Below are positions 1,670 to 20,563 of a stretch of DNA of 20,563 nucleotides, piece after piece; the stretch's first letter is position 1; each line of letters opens with the position of its first letter. The stretch is taken from positions 1 through 20,563 of the IMG/VR virus record IMGVR_UViG_3300045135_000261; one strand, given 5' to 3'. The DNA is from a virus. A program made the position numbers and the translations under genes. The notes under the pieces were generated by a model. The model worked only from the letters and a program-made list of their open reading frames with translations. It made no database searches and was not told the origin of the DNA.

Positions 1670-2479
1670 TTAACCAGTGCATTCACCATCATCCCTTTGG
1701 CAAAGGAATGCCTCATCGTCAAATATCCAATCAGCCTGCCGATCGACAAAGTCGCCAAGATTTTTGTAGGTGCGAGACTTGTGAAAACTGCTGCCCAACT
1801 CAGCCTCCATGTCTGCCCACCATTGCATCCGATCTGGGTAATCGCGCCACATAGCAGCTAATGCCGCCTCTGACTTTAGGAAGCACCCATCACAGTTGCC
1901 AACGCCCACTGGCAGTTGCAGATCAAAGTCATTCGCTGCCCAATATCCATTCACATCAGCCTTGGTCGCGCCTGCATCTGCGAGAGGAAACCAATTATGC
2001 CAACGCTTATCTTTGGATGGTTTCACGCGATGCGCTTCGTCAGCACGAATGCCGACAGTGTTTACCCAGTGCGTCCATCCGATTGACACAAGATAGCGCT
2101 TAATTGTCTTGACCTTGGTTTCTTGTGTGCAAAACCGCGTCATTACATTTGGCAAATAGTTTCTTGACCTAATCAAAGCCTCTAGCGGCTCACCATTGCG
2201 TGATGCGCTGTTGTGACTGACAATCTCAAACCCAACCTTATTATCGCGCCGCACATACTCAATCCATGTGATAGGCACCTGCCATTCATCGCCGCAACGC
2301 TGCACAAAGTCCAACGTTTGCGGCATCTCGCGACCCGTGTTGGCAAACACAACCTTTGCGCGTTCTGGCAGGCCATCGTTTGCGTCAATGATCTGCTTGA
2401 GCATATATGCGCTTGTGCGGCCACCGCTGAAGCTGATCAGCACATTGCCTTCTGGCAAAGCGTAATTATTTTTCAACAT
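1670..2479 (-). CDS. PAPS-reductase-like PP-loop protein (CysH/DndC superfamily)
   Basis: The protein has 269 residues when started at the ATG at 2477-2479, which overlaps the end of the primase-helicase gene (ATGTTGA) and has GGAG just upstream; the longer open frame runs inside that gene. The PP-loop is SFSGGRTSAYM at residues 16-26, used by this superfamily to bind and adenylylate or bind PAPS/ATP. FANTGREMPQTLDFV and the VGIRADEAHR motif are typical of phage and DndC-like members. Cysteines C117, C196, C199 (CDGC), C260 and C267 could hold a metal or Fe-S cluster. The substrate is unknown: sulfate assimilation, nucleotide or tRNA thiolation and DNA phosphorothioation are all used by relatives. 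Base composition looks slightly poorer in GC than the primase gene, which would suit an acquired gene. It is the last gene before the terminator. Confidence 0.8.
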   Translation of the reverse strand: MLKNNYALPEGNVLISFSGGRTSAYMLKQIIDANDGLPERAKVVFANTGREMPQTLDFVQRCGDEWQVPITWIEYVRRDNKVGFEIVSHNSASRNGEPLEALIRSRNYLPNVMTRFCTQETKVKTIKRYLVSIGWTHWVNTVGIRADEAHRVKPSKDKRWHNWFPLADAGATKADVNGYWAANDFDLQLPVGVGNCDGCFLKSEAALAAMWRDYPDRMQWWADMEAELGSSFHKSRTYKNLGDFVDRQADWIFDDEAFLCQRDDGECTG

Positions 2480-4677
2480 TCGCTCCAACTTATCCACTCG
2501 CCGACCACGACGCATGGCACGTCTCGGCCTGTTCGCTTGTCTGGCAGATACTCGACCCGCAGTACGTCCTTGTTGACCCACGTCTTGAGTATCGACTTGA
2601 TCCTGCCCTTGTCTGCCTCGGGGTCGAGGTTCAGCACCTCCGCCACTGTATAGCCCGCCCAGTTTTTGGCCTGCGGATTTGATCGGGCAGGGTCGCCCTC
2701 GGCCTGATTACCGATAGCCTGCTGCACCCGCATGGCGTCCTTGGTGGTGATACCGTCGAACACGTCTGGCAGCTTGTATTCTGTCGCCACGCCGATCAGC
2801 TCATTATTGGCAAGCTCTACGCTGACCATTCGGCGGTAGACTGCCTTGTCTGCGGGCGGGGCCAGATTGGCCTTCCCGCTGTCGATCCGAAACAGGCCTA
2901 TTGCCTCGCTCTGAGGCACCCCAACGTTCATGGCGTCCTCTTCGGTCACCTTGTTAATCACCCGAGCTACCCGTGCCGCACCGATCAGGCTGCCCGCACC
3001 GCGGACGCTGTCGATTGTCGCATCCTCGCCATTGCCCTTGCGGACATGGTGGACAATGTGGACGGCGCAGTTAGCCTCTCGGGCGAGCTTTCGGAACATG
3101 GCCACGATTGCCTGGATCGAGCTGTTGCTGTTCTCGTTAGCCAAGTGAGTCGACACAAACGGGTCGATAATCACGAGGCCGATGCCGTTGTCCTTGACGC
3201 GCTTCATCAGCACCTCGAGCAGGGCGTCGTTTAGCGTCAGGCCATCTCGCGTCTCGGCACCCATGATCAGCTCGATCGTGTCCTCGGCGTCCATGAATAG
3301 CTTGCCTGCTATGTCCTCGTGCTTGACGTTGTAGTGCTTCATGGCTGCCGCGAGACGCAACATCATCTCTGACATGTCGTCCTCGAGGTTAATTACCCAG
3401 ACGTTGCACTGCTCGTAAATGTTCTCGCCGAGCAGCGGCCTGTTTGCCGCGACTGCCAATGCTTCCACCATTGTCAGGGATGTCTTGCCGATACCGCCTG
3501 CAGAGGCCGTCACGCTGACAAACCCCCTGATGTGGGTGCGGCCATAGATCCAGTGGCGGCGGGGCAGCAACAGCTCATTGATCGGCCCGACTGGTGTGGG
3601 CCACTCAAAGGCTGCAGGGGAAGCCTGCCCCGCCGCGTCAGAAGGCGTAGCGTCCTCGAGGGAGGGGGTTGGGACGCTTTGTTCGAGGCGCTGCACCATG
3701 GGGTCGGGGGGAGGTGTCCAACCCTTATCACGGGCGCCGTCGATCGCCTTCTGAACCTCTCGGCGGGTGTCGTCTACTGTGTAGCCCGCCAATGTGAATT
3801 TGTCTGTCAGCTCGTGGATCTCGTCGTCAGATAGGCCGCGGCTGACGTAGCTGCCAACCAACCTCACGACGTTGTGATGCCAGTCATTGCCCTGCAGGAT
3901 GTTCTGCTGCGCCAATGCCCGATCCATGGCCTGCTTACCGAGGTCGATCTGCAGGCCGCCAGATGTATCATGGCGTGATACATCCTGCACGGGGAAGGCG
4001 CGCAGCATGCGGTCGAATTCGACAGGGTCGCGGTCTTGGCTGAATTCTGTGCGGTAAGTGACAAGCTCGGGGACGTAGCCCTTTGCCTGCTTGTCAGCGT
4101 TAGGCCACGACACAGTGCCTGCCACGCGCATGATGCGGCTCGGGTTGACGACCATGGGGTCTGTCTTGAGAGAGGCCGCGATGCGCTTCTGCATGTCACG
4201 CCACGCGTCCAGATTGAAGACAGGATCCTCGAGCCGCCAATAGGCGTGGCCGCGGACAAATGGCTTCGTGCCTGTCTTCACGGACATTGTGAATTTTGGG
4301 CCTGCAAATGACAGAATATTCTGCATGGCGCCGTCATCGTCTGCATCAGCAAAGCAGAAGAATGCCGCCATGATGTCTGTGTCCTTGGCCGCCTTGCCTG
4401 CCAAGACGTTTTTGCCGTCGACAGGGTTTACGCAAACGTAAACATTCTGCTTGGCGGCGTTCATCTTATATGCATGCTCGACCGCGTCGTCGATCTGGAC
4501 GAGCGGGAACAGGGCGGATGTCGTGGATCTAGTGGTCGAGATGCAACGTATCTCGATCATTGGATTACCGCTTAGGGCTTCCCAACCCTCAGTAATCGTC
4601 GAGAGAAATCCGAAGATGTCGGTTTCGCTCGCTTGTGGCAATTCAGTCGTCATGTTACCCTCACTGTGTGGCCTCAT
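2473..4677 (-). CDS. Primase-helicase fusion: AEP (RepB-like) primase plus RepA-like RecA-fold ATPase
   Basis: The protein has 734 residues from the ATG at 4675-4677, behind a strong GGGAGGA; a second good start at 4653 would remove 8 residues. Residues about 45-230 look like an archaeo-eukaryotic primase: FADADDD (D111, D113) as the metal site, GHAYWRL (H144), and TDPMVVNPSRIMRVAGT (from D173). Residues about 255-322 resemble the PriCT helical linker found after such primases. Residues about 360-570 are a RecA-fold ATPase of the RepA hexameric helicase type: Walker A ASAGGIGKTS (K398, T399), Walker B GLVIIDPF (D505) and the IVHHVRKG motif. A C-terminal winged helix is likely (about 665-730). 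It probably primes and unwinds phage DNA, and is the core of the replication operon. Confidence 0.85.
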   Translation of the reverse strand: MRPHSEGNMTTELPQASETDIFGFLSTITEGWEALSGNPMIEIRCISTTRSTTSALFPLVQIDDAVEHAYKMNAAKQNVYVCVNPVDGKNVLAGKAAKDTDIMAAFFCFADADDDGAMQNILSFAGPKFTMSVKTGTKPFVRGHAYWRLEDPVFNLDAWRDMQKRIAASLKTDPMVVNPSRIMRVAGTVSWPNADKQAKGYVPELVTYRTEFSQDRDPVEFDRMLRAFPVQDVSRHDTSGGLQIDLGKQAMDRALAQQNILQGNDWHHNVVRLVGSYVSRGLSDDEIHELTDKFTLAGYTVDDTRREVQKAIDGARDKGWTPPPDPMVQRLEQSVPTPSLEDATPSDAAGQASPAAFEWPTPVGPINELLLPRRHWIYGRTHIRGFVSVTASAGGIGKTSLTMVEALAVAANRPLLGENIYEQCNVWVINLEDDMSEMMLRLAAAMKHYNVKHEDIAGKLFMDAEDTIELIMGAETRDGLTLNDALLEVLMKRVKDNGIGLVIIDPFVSTHLANENSNSSIQAIVAMFRKLAREANCAVHIVHHVRKGNGEDATIDSVRGAGSLIGAARVARVINKVTEEDAMNVGVPQSEAIGLFRIDSGKANLAPPADKAVYRRMVSVELANNELIGVATEYKLPDVFDGITTKDAMRVQQAIGNQAEGDPARSNPQAKNWAGYTVAEVLNLDPEADKGRIKSILKTWVNKDVLRVEYLPDKRTGRDVPCVVVGEWISWSEC

Positions 4678-7400: not shown

Positions 7401-7802
7401 ATGCAGAAAAAAGACACGCGGAAGACTGGCCGCGCGGGCGAATATTTAGCGTCATTTTTGTTTGAAATGAGCGGGCAGGTCGAAGTTCACCACGTCGACC
7501 GAACAGATTATGATCTGATTTGCCGCGTGTCAGACGGTCACCTCGTCAAGGTTCAGGTGAAGGCCGCGACAGAGGCGACGGTCAGGACGCCGCGGCAGCG
7601 GACGCCGACCTATGCTTTTTACAACAAGAGGGACAACGTAGATGTTGATTATTTCTGCTTCGTGGCTCTCGATCAGATGCGTATGAGGCTAATCAGGTCG
7701 CAGGACGTCAAGGTGAAATACACCACCATGCGTGTTGAAGAATTTTCTGATGAGCTACAAGCCGCCGATTTGGCGGCTTTTATTTTAGCTTTCAGCCATT
7801 AG
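7401..7802 (+). CDS. Lone PD-(D/E)XK endonuclease-like protein
   Basis: The protein has 133 residues. GRAGEYLASFLF (E14), DRTDYDLICR (D38), LVKVQVKAA (Q52, K54) and VDYFCFVALD (82-91) follow the PDDEXK_5-type endonuclease pattern, the group close to the I-Ssp6803I homing enzyme and Hjc-like folds. All expected catalytic positions are present, with Q in the E/Q-x-K site as in several members. It stands alone in the plus direction between the control region and the lysis genes. Its stop overlaps the endolysin end by 18 bases and its terminator hairpin lies inside its coding region. The ribosome site is weak (AGAG close to the ATG). The promoter, gene and terminator unit looks like a moron. Homing, host-DNA attack or exclusion are possible roles. 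Confidence 0.7.
   Translation: MQKKDTRKTGRAGEYLASFLFEMSGQVEVHHVDRTDYDLICRVSDGHLVKVQVKAATEATVRTPRQRTPTYAFYNKRDNVDVDYFCFVALDQMRMRLIRSQDVKVKYTTMRVEEFSDELQAADLAAFILAFSH
7759..7787 (+). terminator. Terminator lying before the stop codon of its own gene
   Basis: AAGCCGCC (7759-7766) and GGCGGCTT (7772-7779) form a perfect 8-bp stem with a 5-base loop, followed by TTATTTTA. Leftward the following bases (TTGTAGC) are not a U-tract, so it works rightward. The U-tract ends about 13 bases before the nuclease stop codon (7800-7802), so most terminated messages would lack a stop. Confidence 0.7.
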
Positions 7803-8300
7803 CAGGGCCGCCTGCCGCGTCTCCTTGTTCCGCCGTGTCCAACCGCGGCCGAAGGTATCAAACGTGTTGAGGCCCTGATAGAAGCGCTGACGCTCCTCAT
7901 ACATCATGTCGATGATCTTGACTGGATCCATGTCCATAACAGCCTGCAATGTCTTAGGGCCGATCTTGCCGTCAATTGTGGCGCCCACAATGCGCTGCAG
8001 CGCCCGAGAGGCGCGTCCTGGGCCTGAGTTCACACTCCAGTCTAGGACAGACCAGTCGACGCCAGACGGGAGGTCATCTCCGCGCACGGCGTCCCAGTAG
8101 TTCTTGCGGTAGATCGGCGCCACGTCGTCCACGGTAAGGCTCTTCATTTCGTCGATTGTGACGGCTCGGCCTACCCACTGCTCGTATGTTGCAAGCGTCA
8201 CGCCGAGATTGGTGGCGCCGCCAGGATCTTTAGGGTGGTTGACGAAGCCGCCCTCGTGCTTGAGCAGCATTTCAAAACAGTGGTCGAAGTTCTGTTTCAC
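7785..8300 (-). CDS. Endolysin, glycoside hydrolase 108 (muramidase) with C-terminal peptidoglycan-binding domain
   Basis: The protein has 171 residues from a GTG at 8298-8300 that overlaps the holin stop (GTGA). The N-terminal domain has the GH108 signature LKHEGGFVNHPKDPGG with the catalytic E16, then TNLGVTLATYEQW, and IYRKNYWDAVRGDDLPSG. Residues about 80-165 match the PG_binding_3 domain (WSVLDWSVNSGPGRASRALQ, then GKIGPKTLQAV). It cuts the glycan strands of the cell wall. There is no signal peptide or anchor, so it should depend on the holin for release. It is the last gene of the late leftward operon. Confidence 0.9.
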   Translation of the reverse strand: MKQNFDHCFEMLLKHEGGFVNHPKDPGGATNLGVTLATYEQWVGRAVTIDEMKSLTVDDVAPIYRKNYWDAVRGDDLPSGVDWSVLDWSVNSGPGRASRALQRIVGATIDGKIGPKTLQAVMDMDPVKIIDMMYEERQRFYQGLNTFDTFGRGWTRRNKETRQAALLMAES

Positions 8301-11595: not shown

Positions 11596-11826
11596 TTACT
11601 TTTTACGCTCCAACAGTCTACCAGTCGTGACATACGACTGTAGTTGCCGTTCTAGGAGCGATACGCACCGAACCATCCGATGCGCTTCCATGATGTCCTC
11701 TTCCGAGGCGGTGGGGTATTTAAATACCCCAACCTGACTATCTATTACCATAGTCAACGCCTCTTTGAAAAGATCGTCTTCCAGAATTGCCTTCGCGCGG
11801 GCTGCTTTGACCTTGACGTCCATCAC
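11596..11826 (-). CDS. 76-residue helical protein between portal and scaffold
   Basis: A GTG at 11824-11826 overlaps the portal stop (GTGA), with an ATG as the next codon (11821-11823) also possible. The protein is helical and charged: MDVKVKAARAKAILEDDLF, then MVRCVSLLERQLQSYV, ending in basic GRLLERKK. Small helical proteins with a RAKAILEDELF-like start are often found beside portal and coat genes in alphaproteobacterial phages, as far as I remember, but their job is unknown. Small terminase, head assembly factor or ejection-hub accessory are possible. I see no DNA-binding motif. Confidence 0.6.
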   Translation of the reverse strand: MMDVKVKAARAKAILEDDLFKEALTMVIDSQVGVFKYPTASEEDIMEAHRMVRCVSLLERQLQSYVTTGRLLERKK

Positions 11827-14003
11827 TGACCCATAAAGTTACGTTGACGGTTCTGCTCGGCCTGCACTCGGGCCACGTCGACCGAGGCGCCGTATTGGCC
11901 GAGGATCTTGGCTGCGTCGACAAGCAAGTTCTGAGCCATCTCGTCACGCTTGAGGTCGTCGCTTGCCGCCATCTCCATCAACTTGCGCTGATGCTCCATG
12001 GCCGCCTTCTGCATGTCGACCTGCGCCCGTGTCTGAGCCTTCATGCCCTCAGCCTGCAGATAGGCCTGCTGCGGATCGCTTGCCTGCCCCTGCTGCTGCT
12101 CCTGCATCATCGCCTGCATCATAAGCTGTTGCTCATACTCAGGCGTAATCGGGCGGAAATACCGCTCAGAATTTCGAATGCCAGACGAGGCAAGCATGTC
12201 TGCTACGGTGTTGCGGATGTTGGACAAGCCGACAACGCCGTTCTGTGGGCCGTAGTTCTGATAGACCTGCATCTGCAGCCCGAGGATTTCGCGGTAGGCT
12301 GCCGCCTTTTGATCTTCGCCACCAGTGCCAAGGCCGACATTGACGCTGACGTCCATGCCTATGTCCCAGACCCGAGGGTCGACAGGTGAATACTGGCCAT
12401 TGAGGCGCATAAACTTAGGCGCGTCTGCGTGTCTGACTGTGAGCTTGAGCAACAGGCTGAACAGGCGGCGCATGCCGCCCTCTGCCAAGTTGCGCGCCAT
12501 CACCTCTGTCTGGCCCGCTGCGGCCTGCACCGTGGCATTTACGGCTGCCTTGGTGGTCGACTGCAGTGCGTCTGGGTCAAGGCCCATAGATGCACGGGTG
12601 ACGCCTGTCTTCCCCTCGATCATCTGGTCGAGATACTGCATGGCAGGCAAAGTCTGCGCGGCAGTGAATGGCACAGAAAACGGCATCACAGCGCCAGGCT
12701 GCGTCATGCGGATGATGCCGCCGATCTCGTTGTTCAGCACGTCGTCGATGTCTACAGAGCCGTCTACGATGCCGATGCGTGGCGTGTTGGTCATTGCCAC
12801 GTTGTCGAGAACGCCGCGCATGATTGCAGTCGCGGCGTCTTGGTCGTCGATCAACAGATCTGCAACCGAGCGACCGAAGAATGCATGCGGCTCAGGATCT
12901 ACCTCAAACACGGCAAAGGGGATTTCGTCACATGGCATCATGTCAAGCAACTTGTAGCTCGTGCCGCCCATGATTATGCGGTGCAGGATTGGGACGCCTG
13001 TGCCGTCTGCGTCGATCCTCATGTAGGCCTCGGTGACCAAAACCTTTTTCATGGACGGATCGCGGGGGTTCTCGTCCTCGTCAGGATTGATCGGATAGCC
13101 GCGACGCTCTTCCTCTTCCTGAGCTGTCGTGTCAATCACGTCTGTCGAGCCGTCGAGGTTTGATACCTCGTCAAAGTCAAAGCCCATGGCGACAAGGTCG
13201 CCGACGCGCATGTCGGTGCGGTGACCGCAAATGTAGCAGTCGTCAATCGAGCGTGCGCCGCGGTCGATAAAGAATTCCTCGGGCGGAATAGACACGACGC
13301 AAATGTCGCCGTCTTTCGAGCGGCGCATCACTTTAACGTCATGGCTCTTTTCAACCATCATCGGCGTCTCGACGCCCTCGGCCATAACCTGCTCGCCAAT
13401 CACCTCTTCCGAATGCTCGAGGATCTCGATGTCAGGATCCATCACGACGGCCATGTATTGGGCGTCATTCAAGCCTGTGAAGGTGTGAATTTCCGAGGTG
13501 TCGTATTCTTCATAATACGCCTTGGCGATGCCGACCTTTTTGATCAGGGCGTCGTGGAAGACGTCAGAGAGGATGCGGAAGCCGCCCATCTCCTGAAATT
13601 TGTAGTGCATGTATTCTGTTGCCTGCTCGGCAATCTGCACGTCCTCGGCATTGCGAGGCACATACTCCACATAGCGACCAGACGACAGGAACACCCGCAT
13701 CAGGCTTGGCTTCACGGCGCGGACAGTGTCGCGCACCTTGGTTGCCACGACCCGAGAGCGGCCATCTTCATAACCGATGTCGACCTCGCCGTCGAAATAG
13801 CGCTGCGCCTTGATACGGTCAGGCGCAATGTCGCTCTCAATGAAATCAACAGCGTCGTCGATAGCCGTCGAGACGATGCCCTCAATCTCGTCGTCAGTCA
13901 GAGGCTCGAGGTCATCCTCGCCATATTCCTCTTCCTCGCCTTCCATGGCGTCCTCGAGGATGTCGCGGATGTCTTCGTCGTCAACTAGGTCTTCGGGTTT
14001 CAT
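11823..14003 (-). CDS. Portal protein (P22 gp1-like)
   Basis: The protein has 726 residues (P22 gp1 has 725), from the ATG at 14001-14003 behind AAGGGAAG. The first 42 residues are very acidic. The core has DIAPDRIKAQRYFDGEVD, VRAVKPSLMRVF, and the clip/stem region EGKTGVTRASMGLDPDAL then STTKAAVNATVQAAAGQTEV, which is characteristic of P22-like portals. Residues about 623-726 are a long Q, M and A-rich helix, as in the helical barrel of the P22 portal. The portal forms the dodecameric gate for packaging and ejection. The downstream genes (76-aa protein, scaffold, coat) follow the usual head order. Coupling to the next gene is through GTGA. Confidence 0.9.
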   Translation of the reverse strand: MKPEDLVDDEDIRDILEDAMEGEEEEYGEDDLEPLTDDEIEGIVSTAIDDAVDFIESDIAPDRIKAQRYFDGEVDIGYEDGRSRVVATKVRDTVRAVKPSLMRVFLSSGRYVEYVPRNAEDVQIAEQATEYMHYKFQEMGGFRILSDVFHDALIKKVGIAKAYYEEYDTSEIHTFTGLNDAQYMAVVMDPDIEILEHSEEVIGEQVMAEGVETPMMVEKSHDVKVMRRSKDGDICVVSIPPEEFFIDRGARSIDDCYICGHRTDMRVGDLVAMGFDFDEVSNLDGSTDVIDTTAQEEEERRGYPINPDEDENPRDPSMKKVLVTEAYMRIDADGTGVPILHRIIMGGTSYKLLDMMPCDEIPFAVFEVDPEPHAFFGRSVADLLIDDQDAATAIMRGVLDNVAMTNTPRIGIVDGSVDIDDVLNNEIGGIIRMTQPGAVMPFSVPFTAAQTLPAMQYLDQMIEGKTGVTRASMGLDPDALQSTTKAAVNATVQAAAGQTEVMARNLAEGGMRRLFSLLLKLTVRHADAPKFMRLNGQYSPVDPRVWDIGMDVSVNVGLGTGGEDQKAAAYREILGLQMQVYQNYGPQNGVVGLSNIRNTVADMLASSGIRNSERYFRPITPEYEQQLMMQAMMQEQQQGQASDPQQAYLQAEGMKAQTRAQVDMQKAAMEHQRKLMEMAASDDLKRDEMAQNLLVDAAKILGQYGASVDVARVQAEQNRQRNFMGQ

Positions 14004-14018: not shown

Positions 14019-16022
14019 TTATTCTACAGGGCGGATGATGATGCGTGGAGGTGCGCCAGTCCCGCTTATTGGCCCAGTATTAGTGCCAGGTGTCATGTCA
14101 AGCAAACCTGCGCCAACTTCTCCTGCCTGCTGCACGCCCGCGAGCCCGCCCGCCTTGCGCAGTGGCGCAATCGACTGCTCAATCAAATCTTGCAATCTGC
14201 GCAAGCCGCTTGGGTCGCGTAGCGCATTCATGACAACCTCTGGGTTTCGCTCAATCAAGATCTGAGCAACTCGCATGCTCTCGGCTTCAGAAAGAGGATT
14301 ATCGGCCATATTTCTGAAAATGCCGTTTATGACACTCAGTGCGGCGTCTGTGTCACCTAGGGCTGCCCTAGTTGCTTGAACTGCAGTGTTTCCAATTTGA
14401 GCAACACGAGCCGCTTCTTGCGGTGCGGTGCCAGAACCGCGCAAAACCTCACCAGACGTAGCTGCCGCTTCTTGTGCAACCTGCAGTCTATTAAGAGCAT
14501 TGTTTAAGCTCGCTTGGTCTGGGAATATTTCTTCCATGATTTGACGAGAGTTTGATGGCATTCCGCTTTCATCGCCAAGTCCGCGGATAACTGATGCCCT
14601 GCTAGGCGTTCCCATGCGCTGTTGGAATGTAGCTAGAAATCCATCGCGGAATGCTTGCAGCTCCGCCTGCCCGCGCGCGCTAACATTAGGGTCTTTACTC
14701 GCAATGCGATTACGAATTTGACGGATTTGCGCCATCGCGTCGTCCAACTTCATCGTAAATGATCGCTCGCCGAGTGCAAATGCTTGATTTGCCGCCTCTT
14801 CCGTAGCGACATTGGCTCGAATTTGACCAATTCTGACGCCGTCAATCTCTGGGGCCAAACTATCAATTGCGTCTCGGAGCATTTCCTGAGTTCGCTGCAT
14901 CCCGCGACCAGTTGTCCTGCGTTCTGCGCTACTCAATGCGCCTTGAGCAGCCTCAGCAAGAATGCTGCGGGCCATCTCAATCTGCCCAATAGTGAGGTCG
15001 CCATTAATGGTTACAACGCCGTCTACTACGTCAATTAGATTTCCAATTTCTTCTTGACCCGCCAAAACTGCCTGACGCCTGAACGCACTATTCATTTGCC
15101 CGACAAGGTCAGGTTCTGCTCGAACCGCTGTTTTGAACGCATCAATAAGCTGCGGAGGCGCGACTGTATTGTCAAATGGGCCATATGACGCTGAACGAGC
15201 AGCGCGCTGCCCTGCGTATTCCTCTAGCTGACGAGTTCTTGCTCGGCCAGTCTGACCAGTCAGGCCAACCTCAAGAGCCTCCTGAGCCGCCGCCGCAGTC
15301 TCTGCGGGCCGCGCCTCTAGCACCTCCCTCAATACAGTGCCAGACGGCTGCGAGCTGCGAGCCATGCTGCGCACAGTGTCCCGCAGAGTTCTGTTTTCTG
15401 CCAGTAGTCGACCGCTCTGAATGTCAGCAATGATCTGATCTGGCGTCTTTCCTGTAAGCTCCACAAGGCGCTGAATTTCTGCCTCAACAGCACGAGATCC
15501 ACGGCGCCCAAGGGTGCGTCGAGCTGCATCTATCGCGCGAGTAGCAAGGCCTCCAAGAGCGGTTCCCGCAACCTGACCAACTAGACCGCCCGCAGCGCCT
15601 GCAACCGCGCCACCTGGCACTCGAGAAAAGCGCTCCTCTGCGCTCCCTTCGCCAGTCCCCATGCCATATACAGCGCCGCCTGCCGCGCCTGCCATACCTG
15701 CGCGCAGAAGCCCCCTGCCTGCACCCACAAGGCCCGCCCCAGGAATAAATGCATATGGCAAAGAACCCAAGGCCTCCAAGCCGATCGCAGTCATCGGATT
15801 GCGCTCACGGTAGGCCTCCATGCTGCCACGGATGTCTGCAAGCTCTTCCTGATATGAGCGACCCGTCCGGGACGACCGATACATTGCCTCAAGCTCGTCA
15901 CCAAAGCCGAATGTCAGGCCTTGGGCCGCCAAGCGGCGGCCGCCGTAGCGTCCGCGCTCTGCAAGGTTTTGTTCATCTTGCTGAATTTCACTCAGTGTTT
16001 GGCTTGAGACAGTAATAGTCAT
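14019..16022 (-). CDS. Large ejection (internal virion) protein with glycine-zipper region
   Basis: The protein has 667 residues from the ATG at 16020-16022, one base after the stop of the transglycosylase gene. Residues 33-88 carry AAQGLTFGFGDELEAMYRS, YQEELADIRGSMEAYRE and ALGSLPYAF, a motif set frequent in large virion proteins of alphaproteobacterial phages. Residues about 85-165 are a glycine-alanine-rich stretch (GAGLVGAGRGLL, GMAGAAGGAVYG, GAVAGAAGGLVG, ALGGLATRA) with repeated GxxxG spacing, which suits membrane-inserting helices. The rest is helical. It lies after the transglycosylase and before the portal, so it corresponds best to P22 gp16/gp20, which cross the envelope to let DNA pass. 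Samples of the gene look poorer in GC than the adjoining head genes. Confidence 0.7.
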   Translation of the reverse strand: MTITVSSQTLSEIQQDEQNLAERGRYGGRRLAAQGLTFGFGDELEAMYRSSRTGRSYQEELADIRGSMEAYRERNPMTAIGLEALGSLPYAFIPGAGLVGAGRGLLRAGMAGAAGGAVYGMGTGEGSAEERFSRVPGGAVAGAAGGLVGQVAGTALGGLATRAIDAARRTLGRRGSRAVEAEIQRLVELTGKTPDQIIADIQSGRLLAENRTLRDTVRSMARSSQPSGTVLREVLEARPAETAAAAQEALEVGLTGQTGRARTRQLEEYAGQRAARSASYGPFDNTVAPPQLIDAFKTAVRAEPDLVGQMNSAFRRQAVLAGQEEIGNLIDVVDGVVTINGDLTIGQIEMARSILAEAAQGALSSAERRTTGRGMQRTQEMLRDAIDSLAPEIDGVRIGQIRANVATEEAANQAFALGERSFTMKLDDAMAQIRQIRNRIASKDPNVSARGQAELQAFRDGFLATFQQRMGTPSRASVIRGLGDESGMPSNSRQIMEEIFPDQASLNNALNRLQVAQEAAATSGEVLRGSGTAPQEAARVAQIGNTAVQATRAALGDTDAALSVINGIFRNMADNPLSEAESMRVAQILIERNPEVVMNALRDPSGLRRLQDLIEQSIAPLRKAGGLAGVQQAGEVGAGLLDMTPGTNTGPISGTGAPPRIIIRPVE

Positions 16023-16023
16023 T

Positions 16024-17433
16024 TTATATGCTCATTTCTGGTAGTTGGCCAGTTTCGGAAAATTGCTGACGCTGAGTGTCTGTCATTGCTTCCCACACTC
16101 TTCGCCAAACATCTGCAGTCATTGGGCGCTCCACCCCAGCCCCATCTTCATAAGTTGCTCCGACTGGCATTGTGGGAAGCTCTTGAGGAATTACTGGGCC
16201 CACCTCTTGAGGCATTTGTCCAAAATAAATGAACTCACCTGGCACATTTATAGCCTCAGCGCGAGTGGTATAATTGTTTATAATTCCAGATACTTCTGCT
16301 GATTTTTGCGAATATATATCGCGCGCGCGCTCAGCAATTTGTTGACGCATTTCTGGAGTTAAGCTGCCTTCGCCACTTAGGGCGTTTAAGACAGACTGTC
16401 GGAAGGCAGGCAGCAATGCCCCAGATCTTTGCACCGCAGCAACTTCGCCTTCACGGGCAACAGAACCTGGGTCAAGAATTTTTGCGAATGCAACCGCCAG
16501 AGCGTAATCGCTCACTGAGCTTGGGCTTTCATAAAATGTCATAATGTTTTGAAAGCCATTGCTTACATCGTTCCATCCGAGGTTCTGCAACTCTGCCCGC
16601 AAGTCATCGCGGAACGCACCTGCGGCGGACAATTGTTCGTCGGATAGGCCAAGTTGTCCTGCGGCCTCCCTCATTGCCGCTGCCTCTGCCCTTTGAGCCT
16701 CAGTGTAGGCCGCAATAACTTCCGCAGGCGAACCGCCCGCCTCAAGCATTTGAACGTAAGGCTCAGACCCAGGCTGAGTGCGTAGCCACTCCATAGTCTG
16801 GTTTGCCCTGGCAGTCTCACGACGCCGCTCCTGATTGCGCGTCACAACGGCGGGGATGGTTTCGCTTGGGTTCAAGCGCAGCTCGTTCAAGCCGATCGCC
16901 AAGTTGCCCATAAAGTCACGGAATGTGTCGCGCTGATAGAATGGCTGCGCAGTCTCACCGCCTGCCTCTGGGTCACGGCGCTGAATGCCGAGTGCGCCGA
17001 GCAAGCCCTGCGGCTCTCCTGCCTGCGGCCGCATTCCGCTCGTGGAAGCGAAAACGGCGGGGCCGTCTTGGCCGCCGCCGAAGATACGGCTGAGGTAATT
17101 TTGCGTCTCTGGAAACGGCGGGACGCCGCCATACTCTTCAACGCGACCTGGGCCTGCGTTATACGCCGCAAGTGCAAGACGCTCGTCACCGCCGAAGCGG
17201 TCGAGCATCTGGCGCAGATAGCGGGCAGAGCCTTCCATGTTCTGGATCGGATCGCGCGGATCAACGCCAAGCTCTGCCGCGGTTGCAGGCATGAGCTGAC
17301 CGAGGCCTATTGCGCCTGCAGGGCTTACCGCTTCTGGGTTCCAGTTGCTCTCCGCGCCAATTACTCGGCCGAATAGATTAGGATCCAAGCCATAGGCCCG
17401 TGCGATCCGTGCTGCCTGTCCGCGATAGTCCAT
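16024..17433 (-). CDS. Virion lytic transglycosylase (SLT domain), ejection protein
   Basis: The protein has 469 residues from the ATG at 17431-17433, sharing a base with the upstream stop (TAATG). Residues 10-120 are a soluble lytic transglycosylase: GAESNWNP with catalytic E28, AIGLGQLMPATA (41-52) and LAAYNAGPGRVEEY (88-101). The rest is mostly helical and alanine-rich with no recognised fold (for example MREAAGQLGLSDEQLS and FIYFGQMPQEVGP). It probably opens the peptidoglycan during DNA ejection, not at lysis, as it sits among virion genes; the GH108 endolysin serves lysis. The 3' half has visibly lower GC than the SLT-coding part, so the catalytic domain may have been joined to this body by recombination. 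Confidence 0.85.
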   Translation of the reverse strand: MDYRGQAARIARAYGLDPNLFGRVIGAESNWNPEAVSPAGAIGLGQLMPATAAELGVDPRDPIQNMEGSARYLRQMLDRFGGDERLALAAYNAGPGRVEEYGGVPPFPETQNYLSRIFGGGQDGPAVFASTSGMRPQAGEPQGLLGALGIQRRDPEAGGETAQPFYQRDTFRDFMGNLAIGLNELRLNPSETIPAVVTRNQERRRETARANQTMEWLRTQPGSEPYVQMLEAGGSPAEVIAAYTEAQRAEAAAMREAAGQLGLSDEQLSAAGAFRDDLRAELQNLGWNDVSNGFQNIMTFYESPSSVSDYALAVAFAKILDPGSVAREGEVAAVQRSGALLPAFRQSVLNALSGEGSLTPEMRQQIAERARDIYSQKSAEVSGIINNYTTRAEAINVPGEFIYFGQMPQEVGPVIPQELPTMPVGATYEDGAGVERPMTADVWRRVWEAMTDTQRQQFSETGQLPEMSI

Positions 17434-18401
17434 TACGCTGCCTCGTTAAGTTTCTTCGCCAAGCCGCCGTAGTTGACGCGCAAGTAGCCGTCACCACCCT
17501 CGATCACAAGCTCTGGGTAGATCGCCTCAAGCTCCTGAGCGATCACGCCGACAGTGCGGTCGCCCGATACGCCGATCTGGTCTGCAATCTCGTTCCACTC
17601 CCATGTGTAGAATTTGATGCCATCCACAGTGTCGATGTGCTTGATGTTTTTCTTCAAGCGGCGGTCGGATGATGCAATGGTTGCGCCGAGCGTCAGGTAG
17701 TCAAATAGACCTGGCTTTTGCGTCGTAGTTGTCGACGTCATGGTCGGGATACCACCTGCCGCGGTCGACAGTGCGCCAAGGCGTTGATACGGATCTTGCT
17801 GCTGACGCATAAACTCTTGAAGCTGCGCATCAAGGCGAGACTGCTCAGTGGCCTGCTGTAGCCCGCCGAGCTGCGTGTAGCCCGCCGCGGCTTGCTGTGC
17901 TGCCGACTGAGACTGACCGATTTGCGCCATGGTCGCGGCCTGCGCTTGACTGTAGCCCTGCTGCATCAGATCTGCGATCATCTGGTCGCGGCCAATCTCA
18001 TAGGCTGCCTGACGCTCTGCCTCAAACACACCGCGACGCTCATTCCCGAATGCGCCTGCACGGGTAATGTCTGCCATTTCGCCAGTGCGGGCAATGTCAC
18101 GCTCCCGAGCAGAGCGAGCAAGTGCGGCGTCAATTACTTGGCTTTGATATGGCGACATGTTCGCGGCCGTCCGAGCTGCATACTGCTCAGGCGTCATGCC
18201 TGCGATGCCGCCCGCAACGTCGTAAAACTGCTGCGCCTGCATTGACATCCCAGGAATGTCTGCAACCATCTGACCTTCATATGGCGTGAATTCTTGCTCA
18301 GAAATGTTTGTCGCAAACGGCATGAGAGTGTTCTGCAGAAAGTCCTGCTGAAACTGTGGCATTTGCTGCGTCTGTGTCTGCGAACCGCCTCTGCTACCCA
18401 T
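17433..18401 (-). CDS. Ejection-type protein with C-terminal S74 self-cleaving chaperone domain
   Basis: The protein has 322 residues from the ATG at 18399-18401 behind GGAGA at a spacing of 8. Residues 1-230 are glutamine- and alanine-rich and helical (QFQQDFLQNTLMPFATNI, then YAARTAANMSPYQSQVI, then DAQLQEFMRQQQ), unlike a beta-structured fibre. A short linker (TMTSTTTTQKPGLFDYL) leads to the S74 domain at 243-322: SDRRLKKNI with the Ser-Lys dyad at S245 and K250, VGVIAQELEAIYPELV, and GYLRVNYGGL. In this family the chaperone helps trimers fold and then cuts itself off before the serine, which would release about 78 residues here. In gene order it matches P22 gp7. A tail-fibre or knob assembly role cannot be excluded. 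Confidence 0.75.
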   Translation of the reverse strand: MGSRGGSQTQTQQMPQFQQDFLQNTLMPFATNISEQEFTPYEGQMVADIPGMSMQAQQFYDVAGGIAGMTPEQYAARTAANMSPYQSQVIDAALARSARERDIARTGEMADITRAGAFGNERRGVFEAERQAAYEIGRDQMIADLMQQGYSQAQAATMAQIGQSQSAAQQAAAGYTQLGGLQQATEQSRLDAQLQEFMRQQQDPYQRLGALSTAAGGIPTMTSTTTTQKPGLFDYLTLGATIASSDRRLKKNIKHIDTVDGIKFYTWEWNEIADQIGVSGDRTVGVIAQELEAIYPELVIEGGDGYLRVNYGGLAKKLNEAA

Positions 18402-18403
18402 GG

Positions 18404-18853
18404 TTAAATCTCCATTTCATATGTGCGCGTGATTTCTTTAAAACCACATTTCGGCGCATGTTTAGCCCATCCAAGTCGGCCGTCAGCCTCGATCGTGTCG
18501 CAGCCTAATTTCTTTGCTGCATCCTTAATAACATCAAGTGCGGGCATAAGCCACTCTTGCATATCAAACCCGCCGATCAACAGGATCTTAAAAACTGTCG
18601 CCTGCGGGTGCGTCTCGACCGTTGTCGTCATAGCGGCTCTCGACTTGCCTTCTTTCTTGACGACCCACAGCTGATTAATACCACGCTCTAGCTCGTCATA
18701 TACGTCTGCCATGGTTGCCTTACGCTCGATCCGCTTCTGCGCCAGTCTGATTAGCGGGGCCACATTGCGCCACTCTGTCTCTAGCTGCTCGGGCGGTATG
18801 TAAAACAAGCCAGTTAATTGCTGCATGTTACCCTGATCTAGCATAAAAGTCAC
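18404..18853 (-). CDS. GNAT-like small protein in the tail/ejection module
   Basis: I start it at the GTG at 18851-18853, which overlaps the upstream stop (GTGA); the ATG at 18844 is the alternative. The frame upstream is open but lies inside the jelly-roll gene. The protein has 149 residues. LIRLAQKRIERKATMADVYDE, then WVVKKEGKSRAAMTT, then FKILLIGGFDMQEWL with DVIKDAAKKLGCDTIEADGR and a final WAKHAPKCGFKEITRTY resemble a compact GNAT fold; GWAKHAPKCGFKE is the usual GNAT ending. Related genes sit near virion genes in several podoviruses. Position matches P22 gp14. Whether it is an active acetyltransferase or a repurposed structural or chaperone fold is open: the acetyl-CoA loop is not obvious. 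Confidence 0.55.
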   Translation of the reverse strand: MTFMLDQGNMQQLTGLFYIPPEQLETEWRNVAPLIRLAQKRIERKATMADVYDELERGINQLWVVKKEGKSRAAMTTTVETHPQATVFKILLIGGFDMQEWLMPALDVIKDAAKKLGCDTIEADGRLGWAKHAPKCGFKEITRTYEMEI

Positions 18854-19503
18854 CCATGCAGACGCGTAATGCTGATAGTAGAGGCAGGCGCGGCAGGGGC
18901 GAAGGTCGTGGCCGCTGCCGCACTGAGAAAGCCAGACGTGCTGTCGACCGCCCACATGGCCTCCAGATAGTCGCCCGCAGCGAATGTAAAGATTGCCGAG
19001 CGGCTCACGACCAACACAGAACCATTCTGGTGCAGCGCGTTTTTCATGGTGCTGCCTGCCACGTCAGTCCCATTCACGCGCGGCCAGAACCAAAAGTTTA
19101 CGGTTGACGATGATGTCGATGCAATCTGTGCCGAAAATGCCACCATATACTCGCCGCCTTCTTCGAAGACTATACGAGATGCGGGTGTGCCGTTGCTAAT
19201 GCCCTCTTGGACGCTTGGTGTATACGTCAGTGCATACGCGGTGTTTGCCGCCGCCGCTGTCTGATTGGACGTGATGCCGCCGCTATAGTTGCCATCTTCT
19301 AGGACAATCTGCACAAACTCGCCATTCTTGGACACGACAGGATAGCCATTGGTGTCGTCCCACAGAATGATGCCGTTTTCTGACGGCACGTCATCTTGAC
19401 CGAGAAAGTTTAAACGCACCAAACCGCGCAGCAAGGCGCGGGTCAGGTTGGTCGCCCACACTCTCAGATCAGGGCCGACAGGTGGCAGCGTAGGCGCTGT
19501 CAT
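18850..19503 (-). CDS. Putative tail-tip or receptor-binding protein with TNF/C1q-like jelly roll
   Basis: The protein has 217 residues from the ATG at 19501-19503, overlapping the upstream stop (ATGA). The N-terminal 75 residues (MTAPTLPPVGPDLRVWATNL, then VPSENGIILWDDTNGYPVVS) look like an attachment domain. Residues about 80-217 are strand-rich in the order usual for TNF/C1q-like trimers: ANTAYALTYTP, RIVFEEGGEYMVAFSAQIAS, TVNFWFWPRVNGTDV, LVVSRSAIFTFAAGDYLEAM, ending STISITRLHG. It follows the gp10-like gene, where P22-like phages have the tail needle, and some needles (Sf6) carry a TNF-like knob. Receptor or membrane contact at the tail tip is therefore a reasonable guess. A decoration or minor fibre role is the alternative. 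Confidence 0.6.
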   Translation of the reverse strand: MTAPTLPPVGPDLRVWATNLTRALLRGLVRLNFLGQDDVPSENGIILWDDTNGYPVVSKNGEFVQIVLEDGNYSGGITSNQTAAAANTAYALTYTPSVQEGISNGTPASRIVFEEGGEYMVAFSAQIASTSSSTVNFWFWPRVNGTDVAGSTMKNALHQNGSVLVVSRSAIFTFAAGDYLEAMWAVDSTSGFLSAAAATTFAPAAPASTISITRLHG

Positions 19504-20563
19504 CGCTTGCCACCCTGCGTAACCTCAAGGCGCGGGATGCCGAAGCGCCAGTTGGTTGGACGCGCCGCGTCAACGCGCATCCGAGCCTGACGGCCAGAGA
19601 AGCGGACGCTTGTCGGGTTGGTCATGGTATACGGGCCGTGCGATGTCTCCGACCCATTGGGGTATAGCCGCGTCTTGAACGTCAGCGTCACGTCACCTTG
19701 CGTCAACTCGTCAGGGATTAGCTTCTTGGCGTTGAACGTAAACTCGCCGTCACCGAAATTCGCGGGGCCAGTTTCGGCGTAAACCGCTGACGTGCCAAAG
19801 TTAAAGCCAGTCTCGTGATTGTATAGGTCGCCTGTCTCGTCCGCCCAGATAGGCGCGCGGAATACACCACGGTCAACGCCAGACGTGCGGTTCAGCTTTC
19901 CAATTAGCCAATGGCCCTCTTGGTAATCGAACGCGACATACGAGTCCACCTCAACGCTGTTTTCGGAGGCATAGAACCACCATACCTCAGCATTTTGGCC
20001 ATTCGACACAGCCCACGACTTGCTGATCTGCGCAGGGTTTACGTCATTAAACACAAAGTCATGCACCTCGCATGGAAGCTCGCGGACGCTTGACCCGTCA
20101 AAGACGAAGAAGCCGTTGGCCCCCATCCAGAACACGCCCGCGTCTGTCGCGGCAACCGCCTTACGGGCAATCAGGCCACATGCAGTGCCGATACGCTCAA
20201 ACTGATACACGAAGGGCGGGCCAACATATTGCGCGCGGTGAGCGTCAATATCGGTCAGCACAAGCGTCTGGCCCGCTGTCCGCACAGCGGCCATGCACTG
20301 GCCAACGGTCTGTAGGATTTGGCTGCCCGCCTGATTGGTCGATGCGGGCGTCCAAAGAGTATTGTTCTCTTGGTCGCACCATTGCACCTTGCGCGGGTCG
20401 CCGCCTGCGCCGAGTGCGAAGATGAAGCGTTCCTCTGTTACAGTCAGGCCGAGGCAGTTGACTGGCGCATTGGTGATTGCCGCCGCAGGCGTGCCAGTGC
20501 CGAGCTGCCACTCGTATAGCTTGCCGTCAGCGTATGAACAGGCCACGAGATATTCGCCCCAGT
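19500..20563 (-). CDS. Packaged DNA stabilisation protein, P22 gp10-like beta-propeller (N-terminus outside window)
   Basis: The frame is open to the right edge (W-G-E-Y-L-V before ACSYADGKLYEW), so the gene is 5'-truncated; the GTG at 20544-20546 is internal. The visible 354 residues contain repeated blade-like strands: GLTVTEERFIFALGAGG, LVLTDIDAHRAQYVG, VFWMGANGFFVFDGSSVREL, VWWFYASENSVEVDSYVAFD and TGDLYNHETGF. This matches the gp10 family (a propeller below the portal and adaptor that plugs the tail). The C-terminus is a separate strand-rich domain ending EVTQGGKR. It should keep packaged DNA in and link the adaptor ring to the tail needle. The next gene is coupled through ATGA. Confidence 0.75.
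   Translation of the reverse strand, partial: WGEYLVACSYADGKLYEWQLGTGTPAAAITNAPVNCLGLTVTEERFIFALGAGGDPRKVQWCDQENNTLWTPASTNQAGSQILQTVGQCMAAVRTAGQTLVLTDIDAHRAQYVGPPFVYQFERIGTACGLIARKAVAATDAGVFWMGANGFFVFDGSSVRELPCEVHDFVFNDVNPAQISKSWAVSNGQNAEVWWFYASENSVEVDSYVAFDYQEGHWLIGKLNRTSGVDRGVFRAPIWADETGDLYNHETGFNFGTSAVYAETGPANFGDGEFTFNAKKLIPDELTQGDVTLTFKTRLYPNGSETSHGPYTMTNPTSVRFSGRQARMRVDAARPTNWRFGIPRLEVTQGGKR

What the first reader, a model, noticed from the sequence alone, without database searches (positions are those of the whole stretch)
17433..18401. S74 self-cleaving chaperone domain on an ejection-type protein
S74 domains are best known at the end of beta-helical tail spikes and fibres, where they make trimers and cut themselves off. 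Here SDRRLKKNI with the complete Ser-Lys dyad (S245, K250) follows a helical, glutamine-rich body. The gene directly precedes a lytic transglycosylase and a glycine-zipper protein, the slot of the ejection protein gp7 in P22. Seen: motif, order, composition. Inferred: the protein is an ejection protein whose oligomer is templated and released by S74. If true, ejection channels can be matured by intramolecular chaperones.
Basis: partly seen in the sequence, partly recalled or inferred. Interest (0 to 1): 0.72.

Follow-up and report, generated by a model that had tools for sequence, protein, structure and literature searches.

The report
Self-cutting cap on phage ejection protein
This phage gene encodes what is probably an internal DNA-delivery (ejection) protein ending in a small domain of a kind known from other proteins to cut itself off; related proteins without the domain stop at or near the place where the cut would fall, so the domain looks like a temporary cap removed while the delivery machine is assembled.

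Summary
Observation confirmed (minus strand, 17433-18401, 322 aa): PF13884 at residues 245-299 (E 1.1e-13), dyad S245/K250, glutamine-rich body predicted helical, P22-like gene order 14-7-20-16. The architecture is widespread. In 109 unique ejection-type S74 domains the nucleophile is Ser (107) or Cys (2) and the Lys is invariant. S74 was gained or lost at least three times among close relatives; 8 of 11 S74-free ones end within 7 residues of the predicted cut. In the P22 gp7 family S74-free proteins end in Phe (57 of 69 unique), and Phe precedes Ser in 10 of 12 S74 proteins matching that family. An S74-free homologue of S74-bearing relatives, SU10 gp22, is among the proteins SU10 loses on genome release; a relative with a divergent S74 (Privateer) is in virions. 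So S74 is unlikely to template the oligomer; more likely the body assembles first and S74 senses this and cuts itself off. Cleavage was not shown here or in any paper I saw for this family. PHROGs already labels relatives 'DNA ejection protein'; ten paper searches listed nothing on S74 there.

The parts
17433..18401 (-). whole gene: ejection-type body + C-terminal S74 domain, 322 aa, stop at 17433-17435
   Evidence: ORF; PF13884; phrog_4287
17670..18401 (-). residues 1-244: Gln/Ala-rich body, predicted helical at low confidence; predicted mature protein
   Evidence: composition; AF2; homologues
17670..17729 (-). residues 225-244: less hydrophilic C-terminal tail just before the predicted cut
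   Evidence: hydropathy: above the rest of the body in 103 of 103 S74+ proteins measured (of 109 unique domains)
17436..17669 (-). residues 245-322: short S74/ICA domain without the C-terminal coiled coil
17667..17669 (-). Ser245 codon, predicted nucleophile; predicted cut between 244 and 245
   Evidence: alignment; MYRF S587 / endoNF S911 equivalents as stated in PMC8326128 (passages)
17652..17654 (-). Lys250 codon, predicted partner of Ser245 (Ser+5)
18404..18826 (-). 140-aa acetyltransferase-like protein in the P22 gp14 slot (start inferred from relatives)
   Evidence: phmmer to DB2 gp16 E 4e-5; relatives; no Pfam match
18850..19503 (-). 217-aa conserved protein of the same module
   Evidence: relatives upstream of 39 of 57 body-class S74 genes
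19500..20546 (-). virion structural protein, phrog_3287, in the P22 gp10 slot; cut by the window end
16024..17433 (-). 469-aa protein with N-terminal SLT lytic transglycosylase, P22 gp20 slot
14019..16022 (-). 667-aa protein, phrog_5880 (unknown function), P22 gp16 slot
11823..14003 (-). SU10-type portal protein
   Evidence: PF23899

Best explanation
An ejection protein of the P22 gp7 / SU10 gp22 kind, made as a precursor with a self-cleaving S74 cap. Steps: (1) inferred: the helical body (1-244) is the virion and ejection protein, and while S74 is attached its more hydrophobic C-terminal tail is kept from aggregating or inserting early; (2) inferred: bodies gather as an oligomer, probably at the portal barrel, where P22 gp7 is thought to bind; (3) inferred from conserved residues: this brings the S74 domains together, K250 activates S245, and the 244-245 bond is cut; (4) inferred from S74-free relatives: the 78-residue cap leaves, giving a body with the same kind of C-terminus that S74-free phages make directly. 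Because the domain lacks its own trimerisation coil, it acts as an assembly sensor and release catch more than as a template. Shown here: domain, dyad, their conservation, gene order, coincidence of ends, missing coil. Not shown: cleavage, oligomer state, cap function, and for this phage the presence of the body in the virion.
For: Dyad: 169 of 169 3'-complete S74 ORFs carry [S/C]D..xK; among 109 unique domains Ser 107, Cys 2, Lys 109. The scan patterns did not contain the dyad (one of six did include the Lys). Cys in 2 of 109 fits a nucleophile. Ends: S74-free orthologues in the same gene order stop at or near the junction, and no ORF of 50 aa or more with an S74 match was found anywhere in the 14 S74-free loci checked. 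On a profile built only from S74+ bodies their ends lie at -7 to +2 in 8 of 11 and +14, +14, +20 in the other 3, inside the range of the S74+ junctions themselves (-9 to +28, 51 proteins). S74 changed state at least 3 times on the body tree. P22 family: S74-free proteins end in Phe in 57 of 69 unique (32 of 43 distinct tails) against 4.3% Phe in the preceding 30 residues. Of 104 S74+ bodies, 12 match the profile of this S74-free family (E 1e-3) and 10 of these 12 have Phe before Ser; in the wider class of 31 shorter S74+ proteins outside the body and long classes it is 20 of 31. Ejection role: SU10 gp20-24 are in virions and absent after genome release (PMC9509320 passages); SU10 gp22 aligns with the Grimontviridae S74 proteins at HHalign probability 99 and fills phrog_4287 up to column 321 of 392, while the S74-bearing 7-11 protein fills it to 392. 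The Privateer relative, with dyad and S74 profile match, is annotated 'Virion protein verified via mass spectrometry'. P22 gp7 is itself processed by a host protease before assembly and is present at about portal copy number (PMC4992974 passages).
Against: I found no report of cleavage in this family. In MYRF cutting needs trimerisation through the C-terminal coil, which is missing here, so the domain might not cut. The window body shows no detectable similarity to P22 gp7 (HHalign probability 0.2 or less) and only weak similarity to SU10 gp22 (22) and phrog_4287 (E 0.0014). The Privateer S74 is so divergent that Pfam does not report it at E 0.1; it was seen only with my own profile and by tblastn. 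Aromatic residues before Ser are also common in fibre S74s (Tyr 33, Phe 11 of 77), so part of the Phe match may be S74's own preference. In the window's own class Phe before Ser is a minority (8 of 57). Loss of a domain at its edge is what many truncations would do. In P22, deleting gp7 still gives morphologically normal particles, so a chaperoned gp7 is not needed to build the virion.
Confidence: 0.55

Rival explanations
1. One reading: S74 trimerises and templates the folding of the ejection oligomer, then cuts itself off, as in tailspikes.
For: S74 domain and dyad; known role of S74/ICA in endosialidases and MYRF (passages).
Against: Coiled coil that drives trimerisation absent; S74 gained or lost three or more times among close relatives; body predicted helical, not a beta-helix, at low confidence.
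Confidence: 0.15
2. S74 is a captured passenger domain, or works only as an uncut folding or head-targeting tail; no cleavage occurs.
For: The coil needed for cutting in MYRF is missing; S74 is absent from several close relatives; S74 is also found as a separate 78-aa ORF in L081 and L083.
Against: A passenger should lose the dyad; Lys is kept in 109 of 109 and Ser or Cys in 109 of 109 unique domains. S74-free ends fall at or near the predicted cut.
Confidence: 0.22
3. The protein is an external tail fibre or tip protein with an ordinary S74 chaperone.
For: Many S74 proteins are fibres; some records name relatives 'tail spike protein/chaperone' or 'tail fiber domain-containing protein'.
Against: Match to a DNA ejection family (weak for the body alone), gene order 14-7-20-16, no beta structure predicted before S74 (low confidence), and ejection-type S74s lie on the other side of a 98/96 branch from 64 fibre S74s.
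Confidence: 0.06

Closest known systems
S74 / intramolecular chaperone auto-processing (ICA) domains: endosialidase endoNF (3gw6), GA-1 neck appendage (3gud), MYRF (7dc3)
   Same: Pfam PF13884, Ser-Lys dyad spaced by five, same core fold in the model (VIA-align Z 5.0, 3.8, 3.7), C-terminal position in phage proteins
   Different: No C-terminal coiled coil; no recognisable fibre part before it; attached to ejection-type proteins
P22 gp7 (phrog_598 'DNA ejection')
   Same: Gene slot 14-7-20-16; P22-type S74+ proteins are homologous to it (HHalign 98.7) and in the alignment their Ser falls where gp7 ends; gp7 is also made as a precursor, losing 20 N-terminal residues to a host protease
   Different: No S74; processed at the other end and by a host enzyme; no sequence similarity detected with the window body itself
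phrog_4287 'DNA ejection protein': SU10 gp22, Salmonella phage 7-11, Cronobacter GAP52, Proteus Privateer
   Same: Profile match of the whole window protein (E 7e-21); the family holds both S74-free (SU10 gp22) and S74-bearing (7-11, Privateer) proteins; GAP52 is their close relative
   Different: Longer S74+ proteins (409-412 aa); window body alone matches only at E 0.0014
Octadecabacter Antarctic DB virus 2 gp18
   Same: Best-scoring named hit, 52% identity over residues 214-318, same neighbours
   Different: Annotated 'tail spike protein/chaperone'; N-terminal part differs

Membership tests
S74 / ICA self-cleaving domain | PF13884 profile match above the curated cut-off | tested here: met
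   51.7 bits against 22
S74 / ICA self-cleaving domain | Ser-Lys catalytic dyad, Lys at Ser+5 | tested here: met
   S245/K250; 109 of 109 unique ejection-type domains keep Ser or Cys and Lys
S74 / ICA self-cleaving domain | ICA core fold | tested here: met
   S74 model mean pLDDT 83.7; the three entries listed are 7dc3, 3gw6, 3gud, but Z is at most 5.0; Foldseek alone gave no match at E 0.001
S74 / ICA self-cleaving domain | C-terminal coiled coil that drives trimerisation | tested here: not met
   Model ends at MYRF residue 682, before 685-699; length 64-85 against 84-111 in fibres
S74 / ICA self-cleaving domain | Auto-cleavage before Ser | not testable with these tools
   needs protein
Trimeric tailspike/fibre with S74 | beta-structured trimeric part before S74 | tested here: inconclusive
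   AF2 predicts helices only, at low confidence
P22 gp7-type ejection protein | gene slot between gp14-like and gp20/gp16-like genes | tested here: met
P22 gp7-type ejection protein | sequence homology to P22 gp7 | tested here: not met
   window-class body: HHalign probability 0.2 or less, 0 body-class proteins among the 12 hits of the P22 profile; met for P22-type S74+ relatives (98.7)
phrog_4287 DNA ejection protein | profile match of the body, not only of S74 | tested here: inconclusive
   body alone E 0.0014; S74+ body profile against Grimontviridae bodies HHalign 94, against SU10 gp22 22
phrog_4287 DNA ejection protein | present in virions and ejected with DNA | not testable with these tools
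   reported for SU10 gp20-24; virion presence for Privateer

The most novel reading that the evidence does not exclude
A separate, coil-less branch of S74 domains serves as an assembly-triggered, self-releasing C-terminal cap of podovirus ejection proteins: the body oligomer, not S74, provides the geometry that switches on cutting, and cutting frees a hydrophobic, often Phe-ended tail needed for the ejection channel. It would be a phage-encoded counterpart of the host-protease processing of P22 gp7.
Probability: 0.42. Interest if true: 0.76.

Novelty: new variant of a known kind. Interest (0 to 1): 0.62.

Why it matters
Ejection proteins leave the capsid and are thought to form a conduit across the cell envelope (PMC8402733 and PMC8954989, abstracts seen), yet how they are kept soluble and matured is, to my knowledge, poorly understood. 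A widespread self-cleaving cap would give a testable maturation step, a simple mutant (S245A) that should trap the precursor, and a case of an S74 domain that must work without its own trimerisation coil, which bears on how S74 cutting is triggered in general, MYRF included.

Tried and rejected
Foldseek of the full model and of the S74 model against the PDB gave no match at E 0.001; the full model matched viral models in BFVD, several of them named as S74 or intramolecular-chaperone proteins, probably through the S74 part. phmmer of the body against PDB sequences gave nothing better than E 0.29. NCBIfam had nothing for the protein at E 0.1. HHalign found no link between T7 gp14 and the P22 gp7 profile (probability 0.1), so the 'gp14-like (OM)' label of the review PMC8954989 (table passage) was not confirmed by sequence here. 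A regex anchor for measuring offsets failed for most rows and was replaced by the profile measure. The idea that the C-terminal Phe imitates the C-terminal Phe signal of outer-membrane proteins (recalled, no call) was considered and not pursued.

Literature: ten searches ran. Searches had no hit; the two hits have titles on capsule depolymerases; in the others only 12-20 of the papers held were listed (21 to 107 held), so the absence is of what was listed. I read passages of PMC9144972, PMC10386132, PMC8954989, PMC9509320, PMC4281155, PMC7881722 (plus its virion section), PMC8326128, PMC3742443 and PMC4992974; other papers were seen as listings only. No bioRxiv is held.

Rows dropped and limits: S74 ORFs cut at the 3' end and L085 (a fibre) were left out, L098 and L023 were added by hand, and identical domains were counted once. 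The fibre control comes from one seed fibre and its relatives (best 80 of 388 kept), so it does not sample all fibre S74s, and the seed alignment contained the coil, which may favour coil-bearing fibres. Independent support: the 18 listed profiles labelled 'tail' run on for 15 to 185 columns past the match, the ejection and structural ones (phrog_4287, phrog_6121) for 5 and 3. One search kept the best 80 of 557 relatives. The tree has 80 columns and an unsettled bootstrap.

Full report
WHAT IS THERE. The gene lies on the minus strand at 17433-18401 and encodes 322 residues. Residues 245-299 match Pfam PF13884 (Peptidase_S74, E 1.1e-13). The motif SDRRLKK places Ser at 245 and Lys at 250. The window is a 20,563-base virus record with one S74 match. 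Reading on the minus strand, the genes are a phrog_3287 virion protein, a 217-aa protein, a 140-aa acetyltransferase-like protein, the S74 gene, a 469-aa protein with an SLT domain, a 667-aa protein, a SU10-type portal, scaffold and SU10-type capsid. In P22 the order is 10-26-14-7-20-16, so the S74 gene holds the gp7 slot.

IT IS NOT A ONE-OFF. Named phages with S74 in or next to this slot include Octadecabacter DB2 gp18, Vibrio 199E37-1, Pseudoalteromonas H6/1 gp17 (annotated putative ejection protein), Pseudomonas AH02 gp11, Rhizobium RHph_Y1_10 and Vibrio 1.275, Vibrio PVA1, Microcystis Mae-JY35, Pseudomonas PAE2, Ochrobactrum OH and Rhizobium RHph_N2 (sequences). The Grimontviridae phages GAP52, 7-11 and Privateer carry it on proteins annotated DNA injection or virion-associated; the Privateer domain is divergent, missed by Pfam at E 0.1 but matched from its Ser328 by my S74 profile. 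Scans of IMG/VR gave many more. Among 57 body-class S74 genes, 44 have the acetyltransferase-like gene upstream and 16 have an SLT-protein relative downstream; many contigs end too early to tell, and this was not corrected for.

IS IT AN EJECTION PROTEIN. The whole protein matches phrog_4287, DNA ejection protein (E 7e-21, residues 107-315, S74 included); the body alone matches weakly (0.0014). HHalign links window-type bodies to the Grimontviridae bodies (probability 94, 95 columns) and these to SU10 gp22 (probability 99, 264 columns); window-type bodies gave 22 to SU10 gp22 directly and 0.2 or less to P22 gp7. SU10 gp20-24 are in the virion and missing from the genome-release particle (PMC9509320, passages). 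P22-type S74+ proteins are homologous to P22 gp7 (probability 98.7, 125 columns). The Privateer protein is recorded as verified in virions by mass spectrometry. So the role is well supported for relatives and inferred for this phage.

IS THE DOMAIN LIKELY ACTIVE. All 169 3'-complete S74 ORFs collected from ejection-type loci keep [S/C]D..xK; of 109 unique domains 107 have Ser, 2 have Cys (L114, L116), and all have Lys. The 109 are 57 on body-profile proteins, 30 on other shorter proteins, 19 on long or 5'-cut proteins and 3 on short ORFs. MYRF is cut between P586 and S587; S587A and K592A block it, and these residues equal S911 and K916 of endoNF (PMC8326128 passages). A passenger domain would be expected to lose this dyad.

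WHAT THE DOMAIN LACKS. In MYRF the C-terminal triple coiled coil is the main driver of the trimer and cutting happens only in trimers; residues named there are L685, L692, R695, I696, L699, and zipper mutants block processing (PMC3742443 passages). The S74 model of the window (mean pLDDT 83.7) aligns with MYRF 607-682 (Z 5.0, 64 residues, rmsd 1.8), endoNF and GA-1 and its last residue falls at 682. Across 109 ejection-type domains the length from Ser to the end is 64-85 (median 74), against 84-111 (median 96) in 77 fibre S74s; residues after the V-x-Y motif are 1-18 (106 measured) against 13-39 (76 measured), with one fibre under 23. On a tree of 141 S74 domains the 64 fibre domains lie on one side of one branch (98/96; only 80 columns, bootstrap not settled). 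Fibre sampling is narrow, see Tried and rejected.

WHERE S74-FREE RELATIVES END. L042, L043, L046, L182, L184, L185, L195, L210, L213, L215 and L216 lack S74, and no ORF of 50 aa or more in these loci matches the S74 profile; three-frame reading after the stop showed none in L042, L043, L046, L182, L185, L195, L213 and L216 (L210 has only 82 bases downstream). On a profile of S74+ bodies only, their ends lie at -7 to +2 in 8 of 11 and at +14, +14, +20 in L213, L215, L216; the S74+ junctions themselves range from -9 to +28 in 51 proteins. The body tree (56 S74+, 11 S74-free) forces at least three changes on well supported branches; whether gains or losses is not settled, though S74-free rows sit inside S74+ ones. 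In the P22 family, 69 unique S74-free proteins end in Phe 57 times and otherwise in I, Y, V or W; 12 of 104 S74+ bodies match that family's profile and 10 of the 12 have Phe just before Ser. In the wider class of 31 it is 20, against 11 of 77 fibres (Fisher p 6e-7); in the window's class 8 of 57. Fibre S74s also like aromatic residues there (Tyr 33, Phe 11 of 77), so this is supportive, not proof.

HOW IT PROBABLY WORKS. The simplest reading is a temporary cap. The last 20 residues before the cut are more hydrophobic than the rest of the body in 103 of 103 S74+ proteins measured and in 67 of 69 P22-family S74-free ones. P22 gp7 is made as a precursor, is present at about 12 copies like the portal, and is needed for efficient incorporation of gp20, although particles form without it (PMC4992974 passages). 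I propose that the body oligomer forms first, brings the short S74 domains together, and so triggers the cut. Cleavage itself is unproven.

KNOWN OR NEW. PHROGs and several GenBank records already join S74-bearing proteins to the label DNA ejection or injection. None of the papers listed by ten searches was seen to discuss S74 in ejection proteins (listings capped). The parts I believe new are the dyad census, the missing coil, the repeated presence and absence with ends at the junction, and the Phe match.

Noticed in passing
L081:7007-7243, L083:5672-5908 (L082 cut): S74 is encoded as a separate 78-aa ORF overlapping the end of the body gene by ATGA, while relatives (L070, L071, L076) have it fused: a naturally split version.
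   Followed up: partly
L006:6700-9234 and other 700-844 aa proteins: Roseobacter phage CRP-235 protein with an N-terminal LysM domain (E 9e-11), long middle part and a short S74; similar long S74 proteins are common in the census, their N-termini not checked.
   Followed up: partly
L042:7679-9109, L185, L046 against L043:7726-9213, L182, window 16024-17433: The gene after the S74-free or S74-bearing protein starts with either an SLT transglycosylase or an M15 peptidase-like domain in otherwise similar phages (Pfam for window, L042 and L043; the others read by eye).
   Followed up: partly
L114:4911-5705, L115/L116:4926-5780: Cys replaces the catalytic Ser of S74, with Lys kept.
   Followed up: partly
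ORFs upstream of the S74 gene in L051, L057, L059, L066, L078: In these DB2-like relatives the N-terminal part of the body profile weakly matches a separate upstream ORF (E 1e-5 to 2e-3); the body may be split in two genes.
   Followed up: no
L026:9369-10058 (P22 gp7): The 20 residues removed from P22 gp7 by a host protease are at its N-terminus, and several P22-type S74+ proteins seem to begin near the mature start, so the two processing steps would be at opposite ends.
   Followed up: no
L386:2515-2751: The only relative found in the genome collection is on a small contig of a Synechococcaceae MAG.
   Followed up: no
window 1670-2581 (-) and 7785-8300 (-): A protein with weak matches to PAPS-reductase-type profiles, and a glycosyl hydrolase 108 protein.
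   Followed up: no
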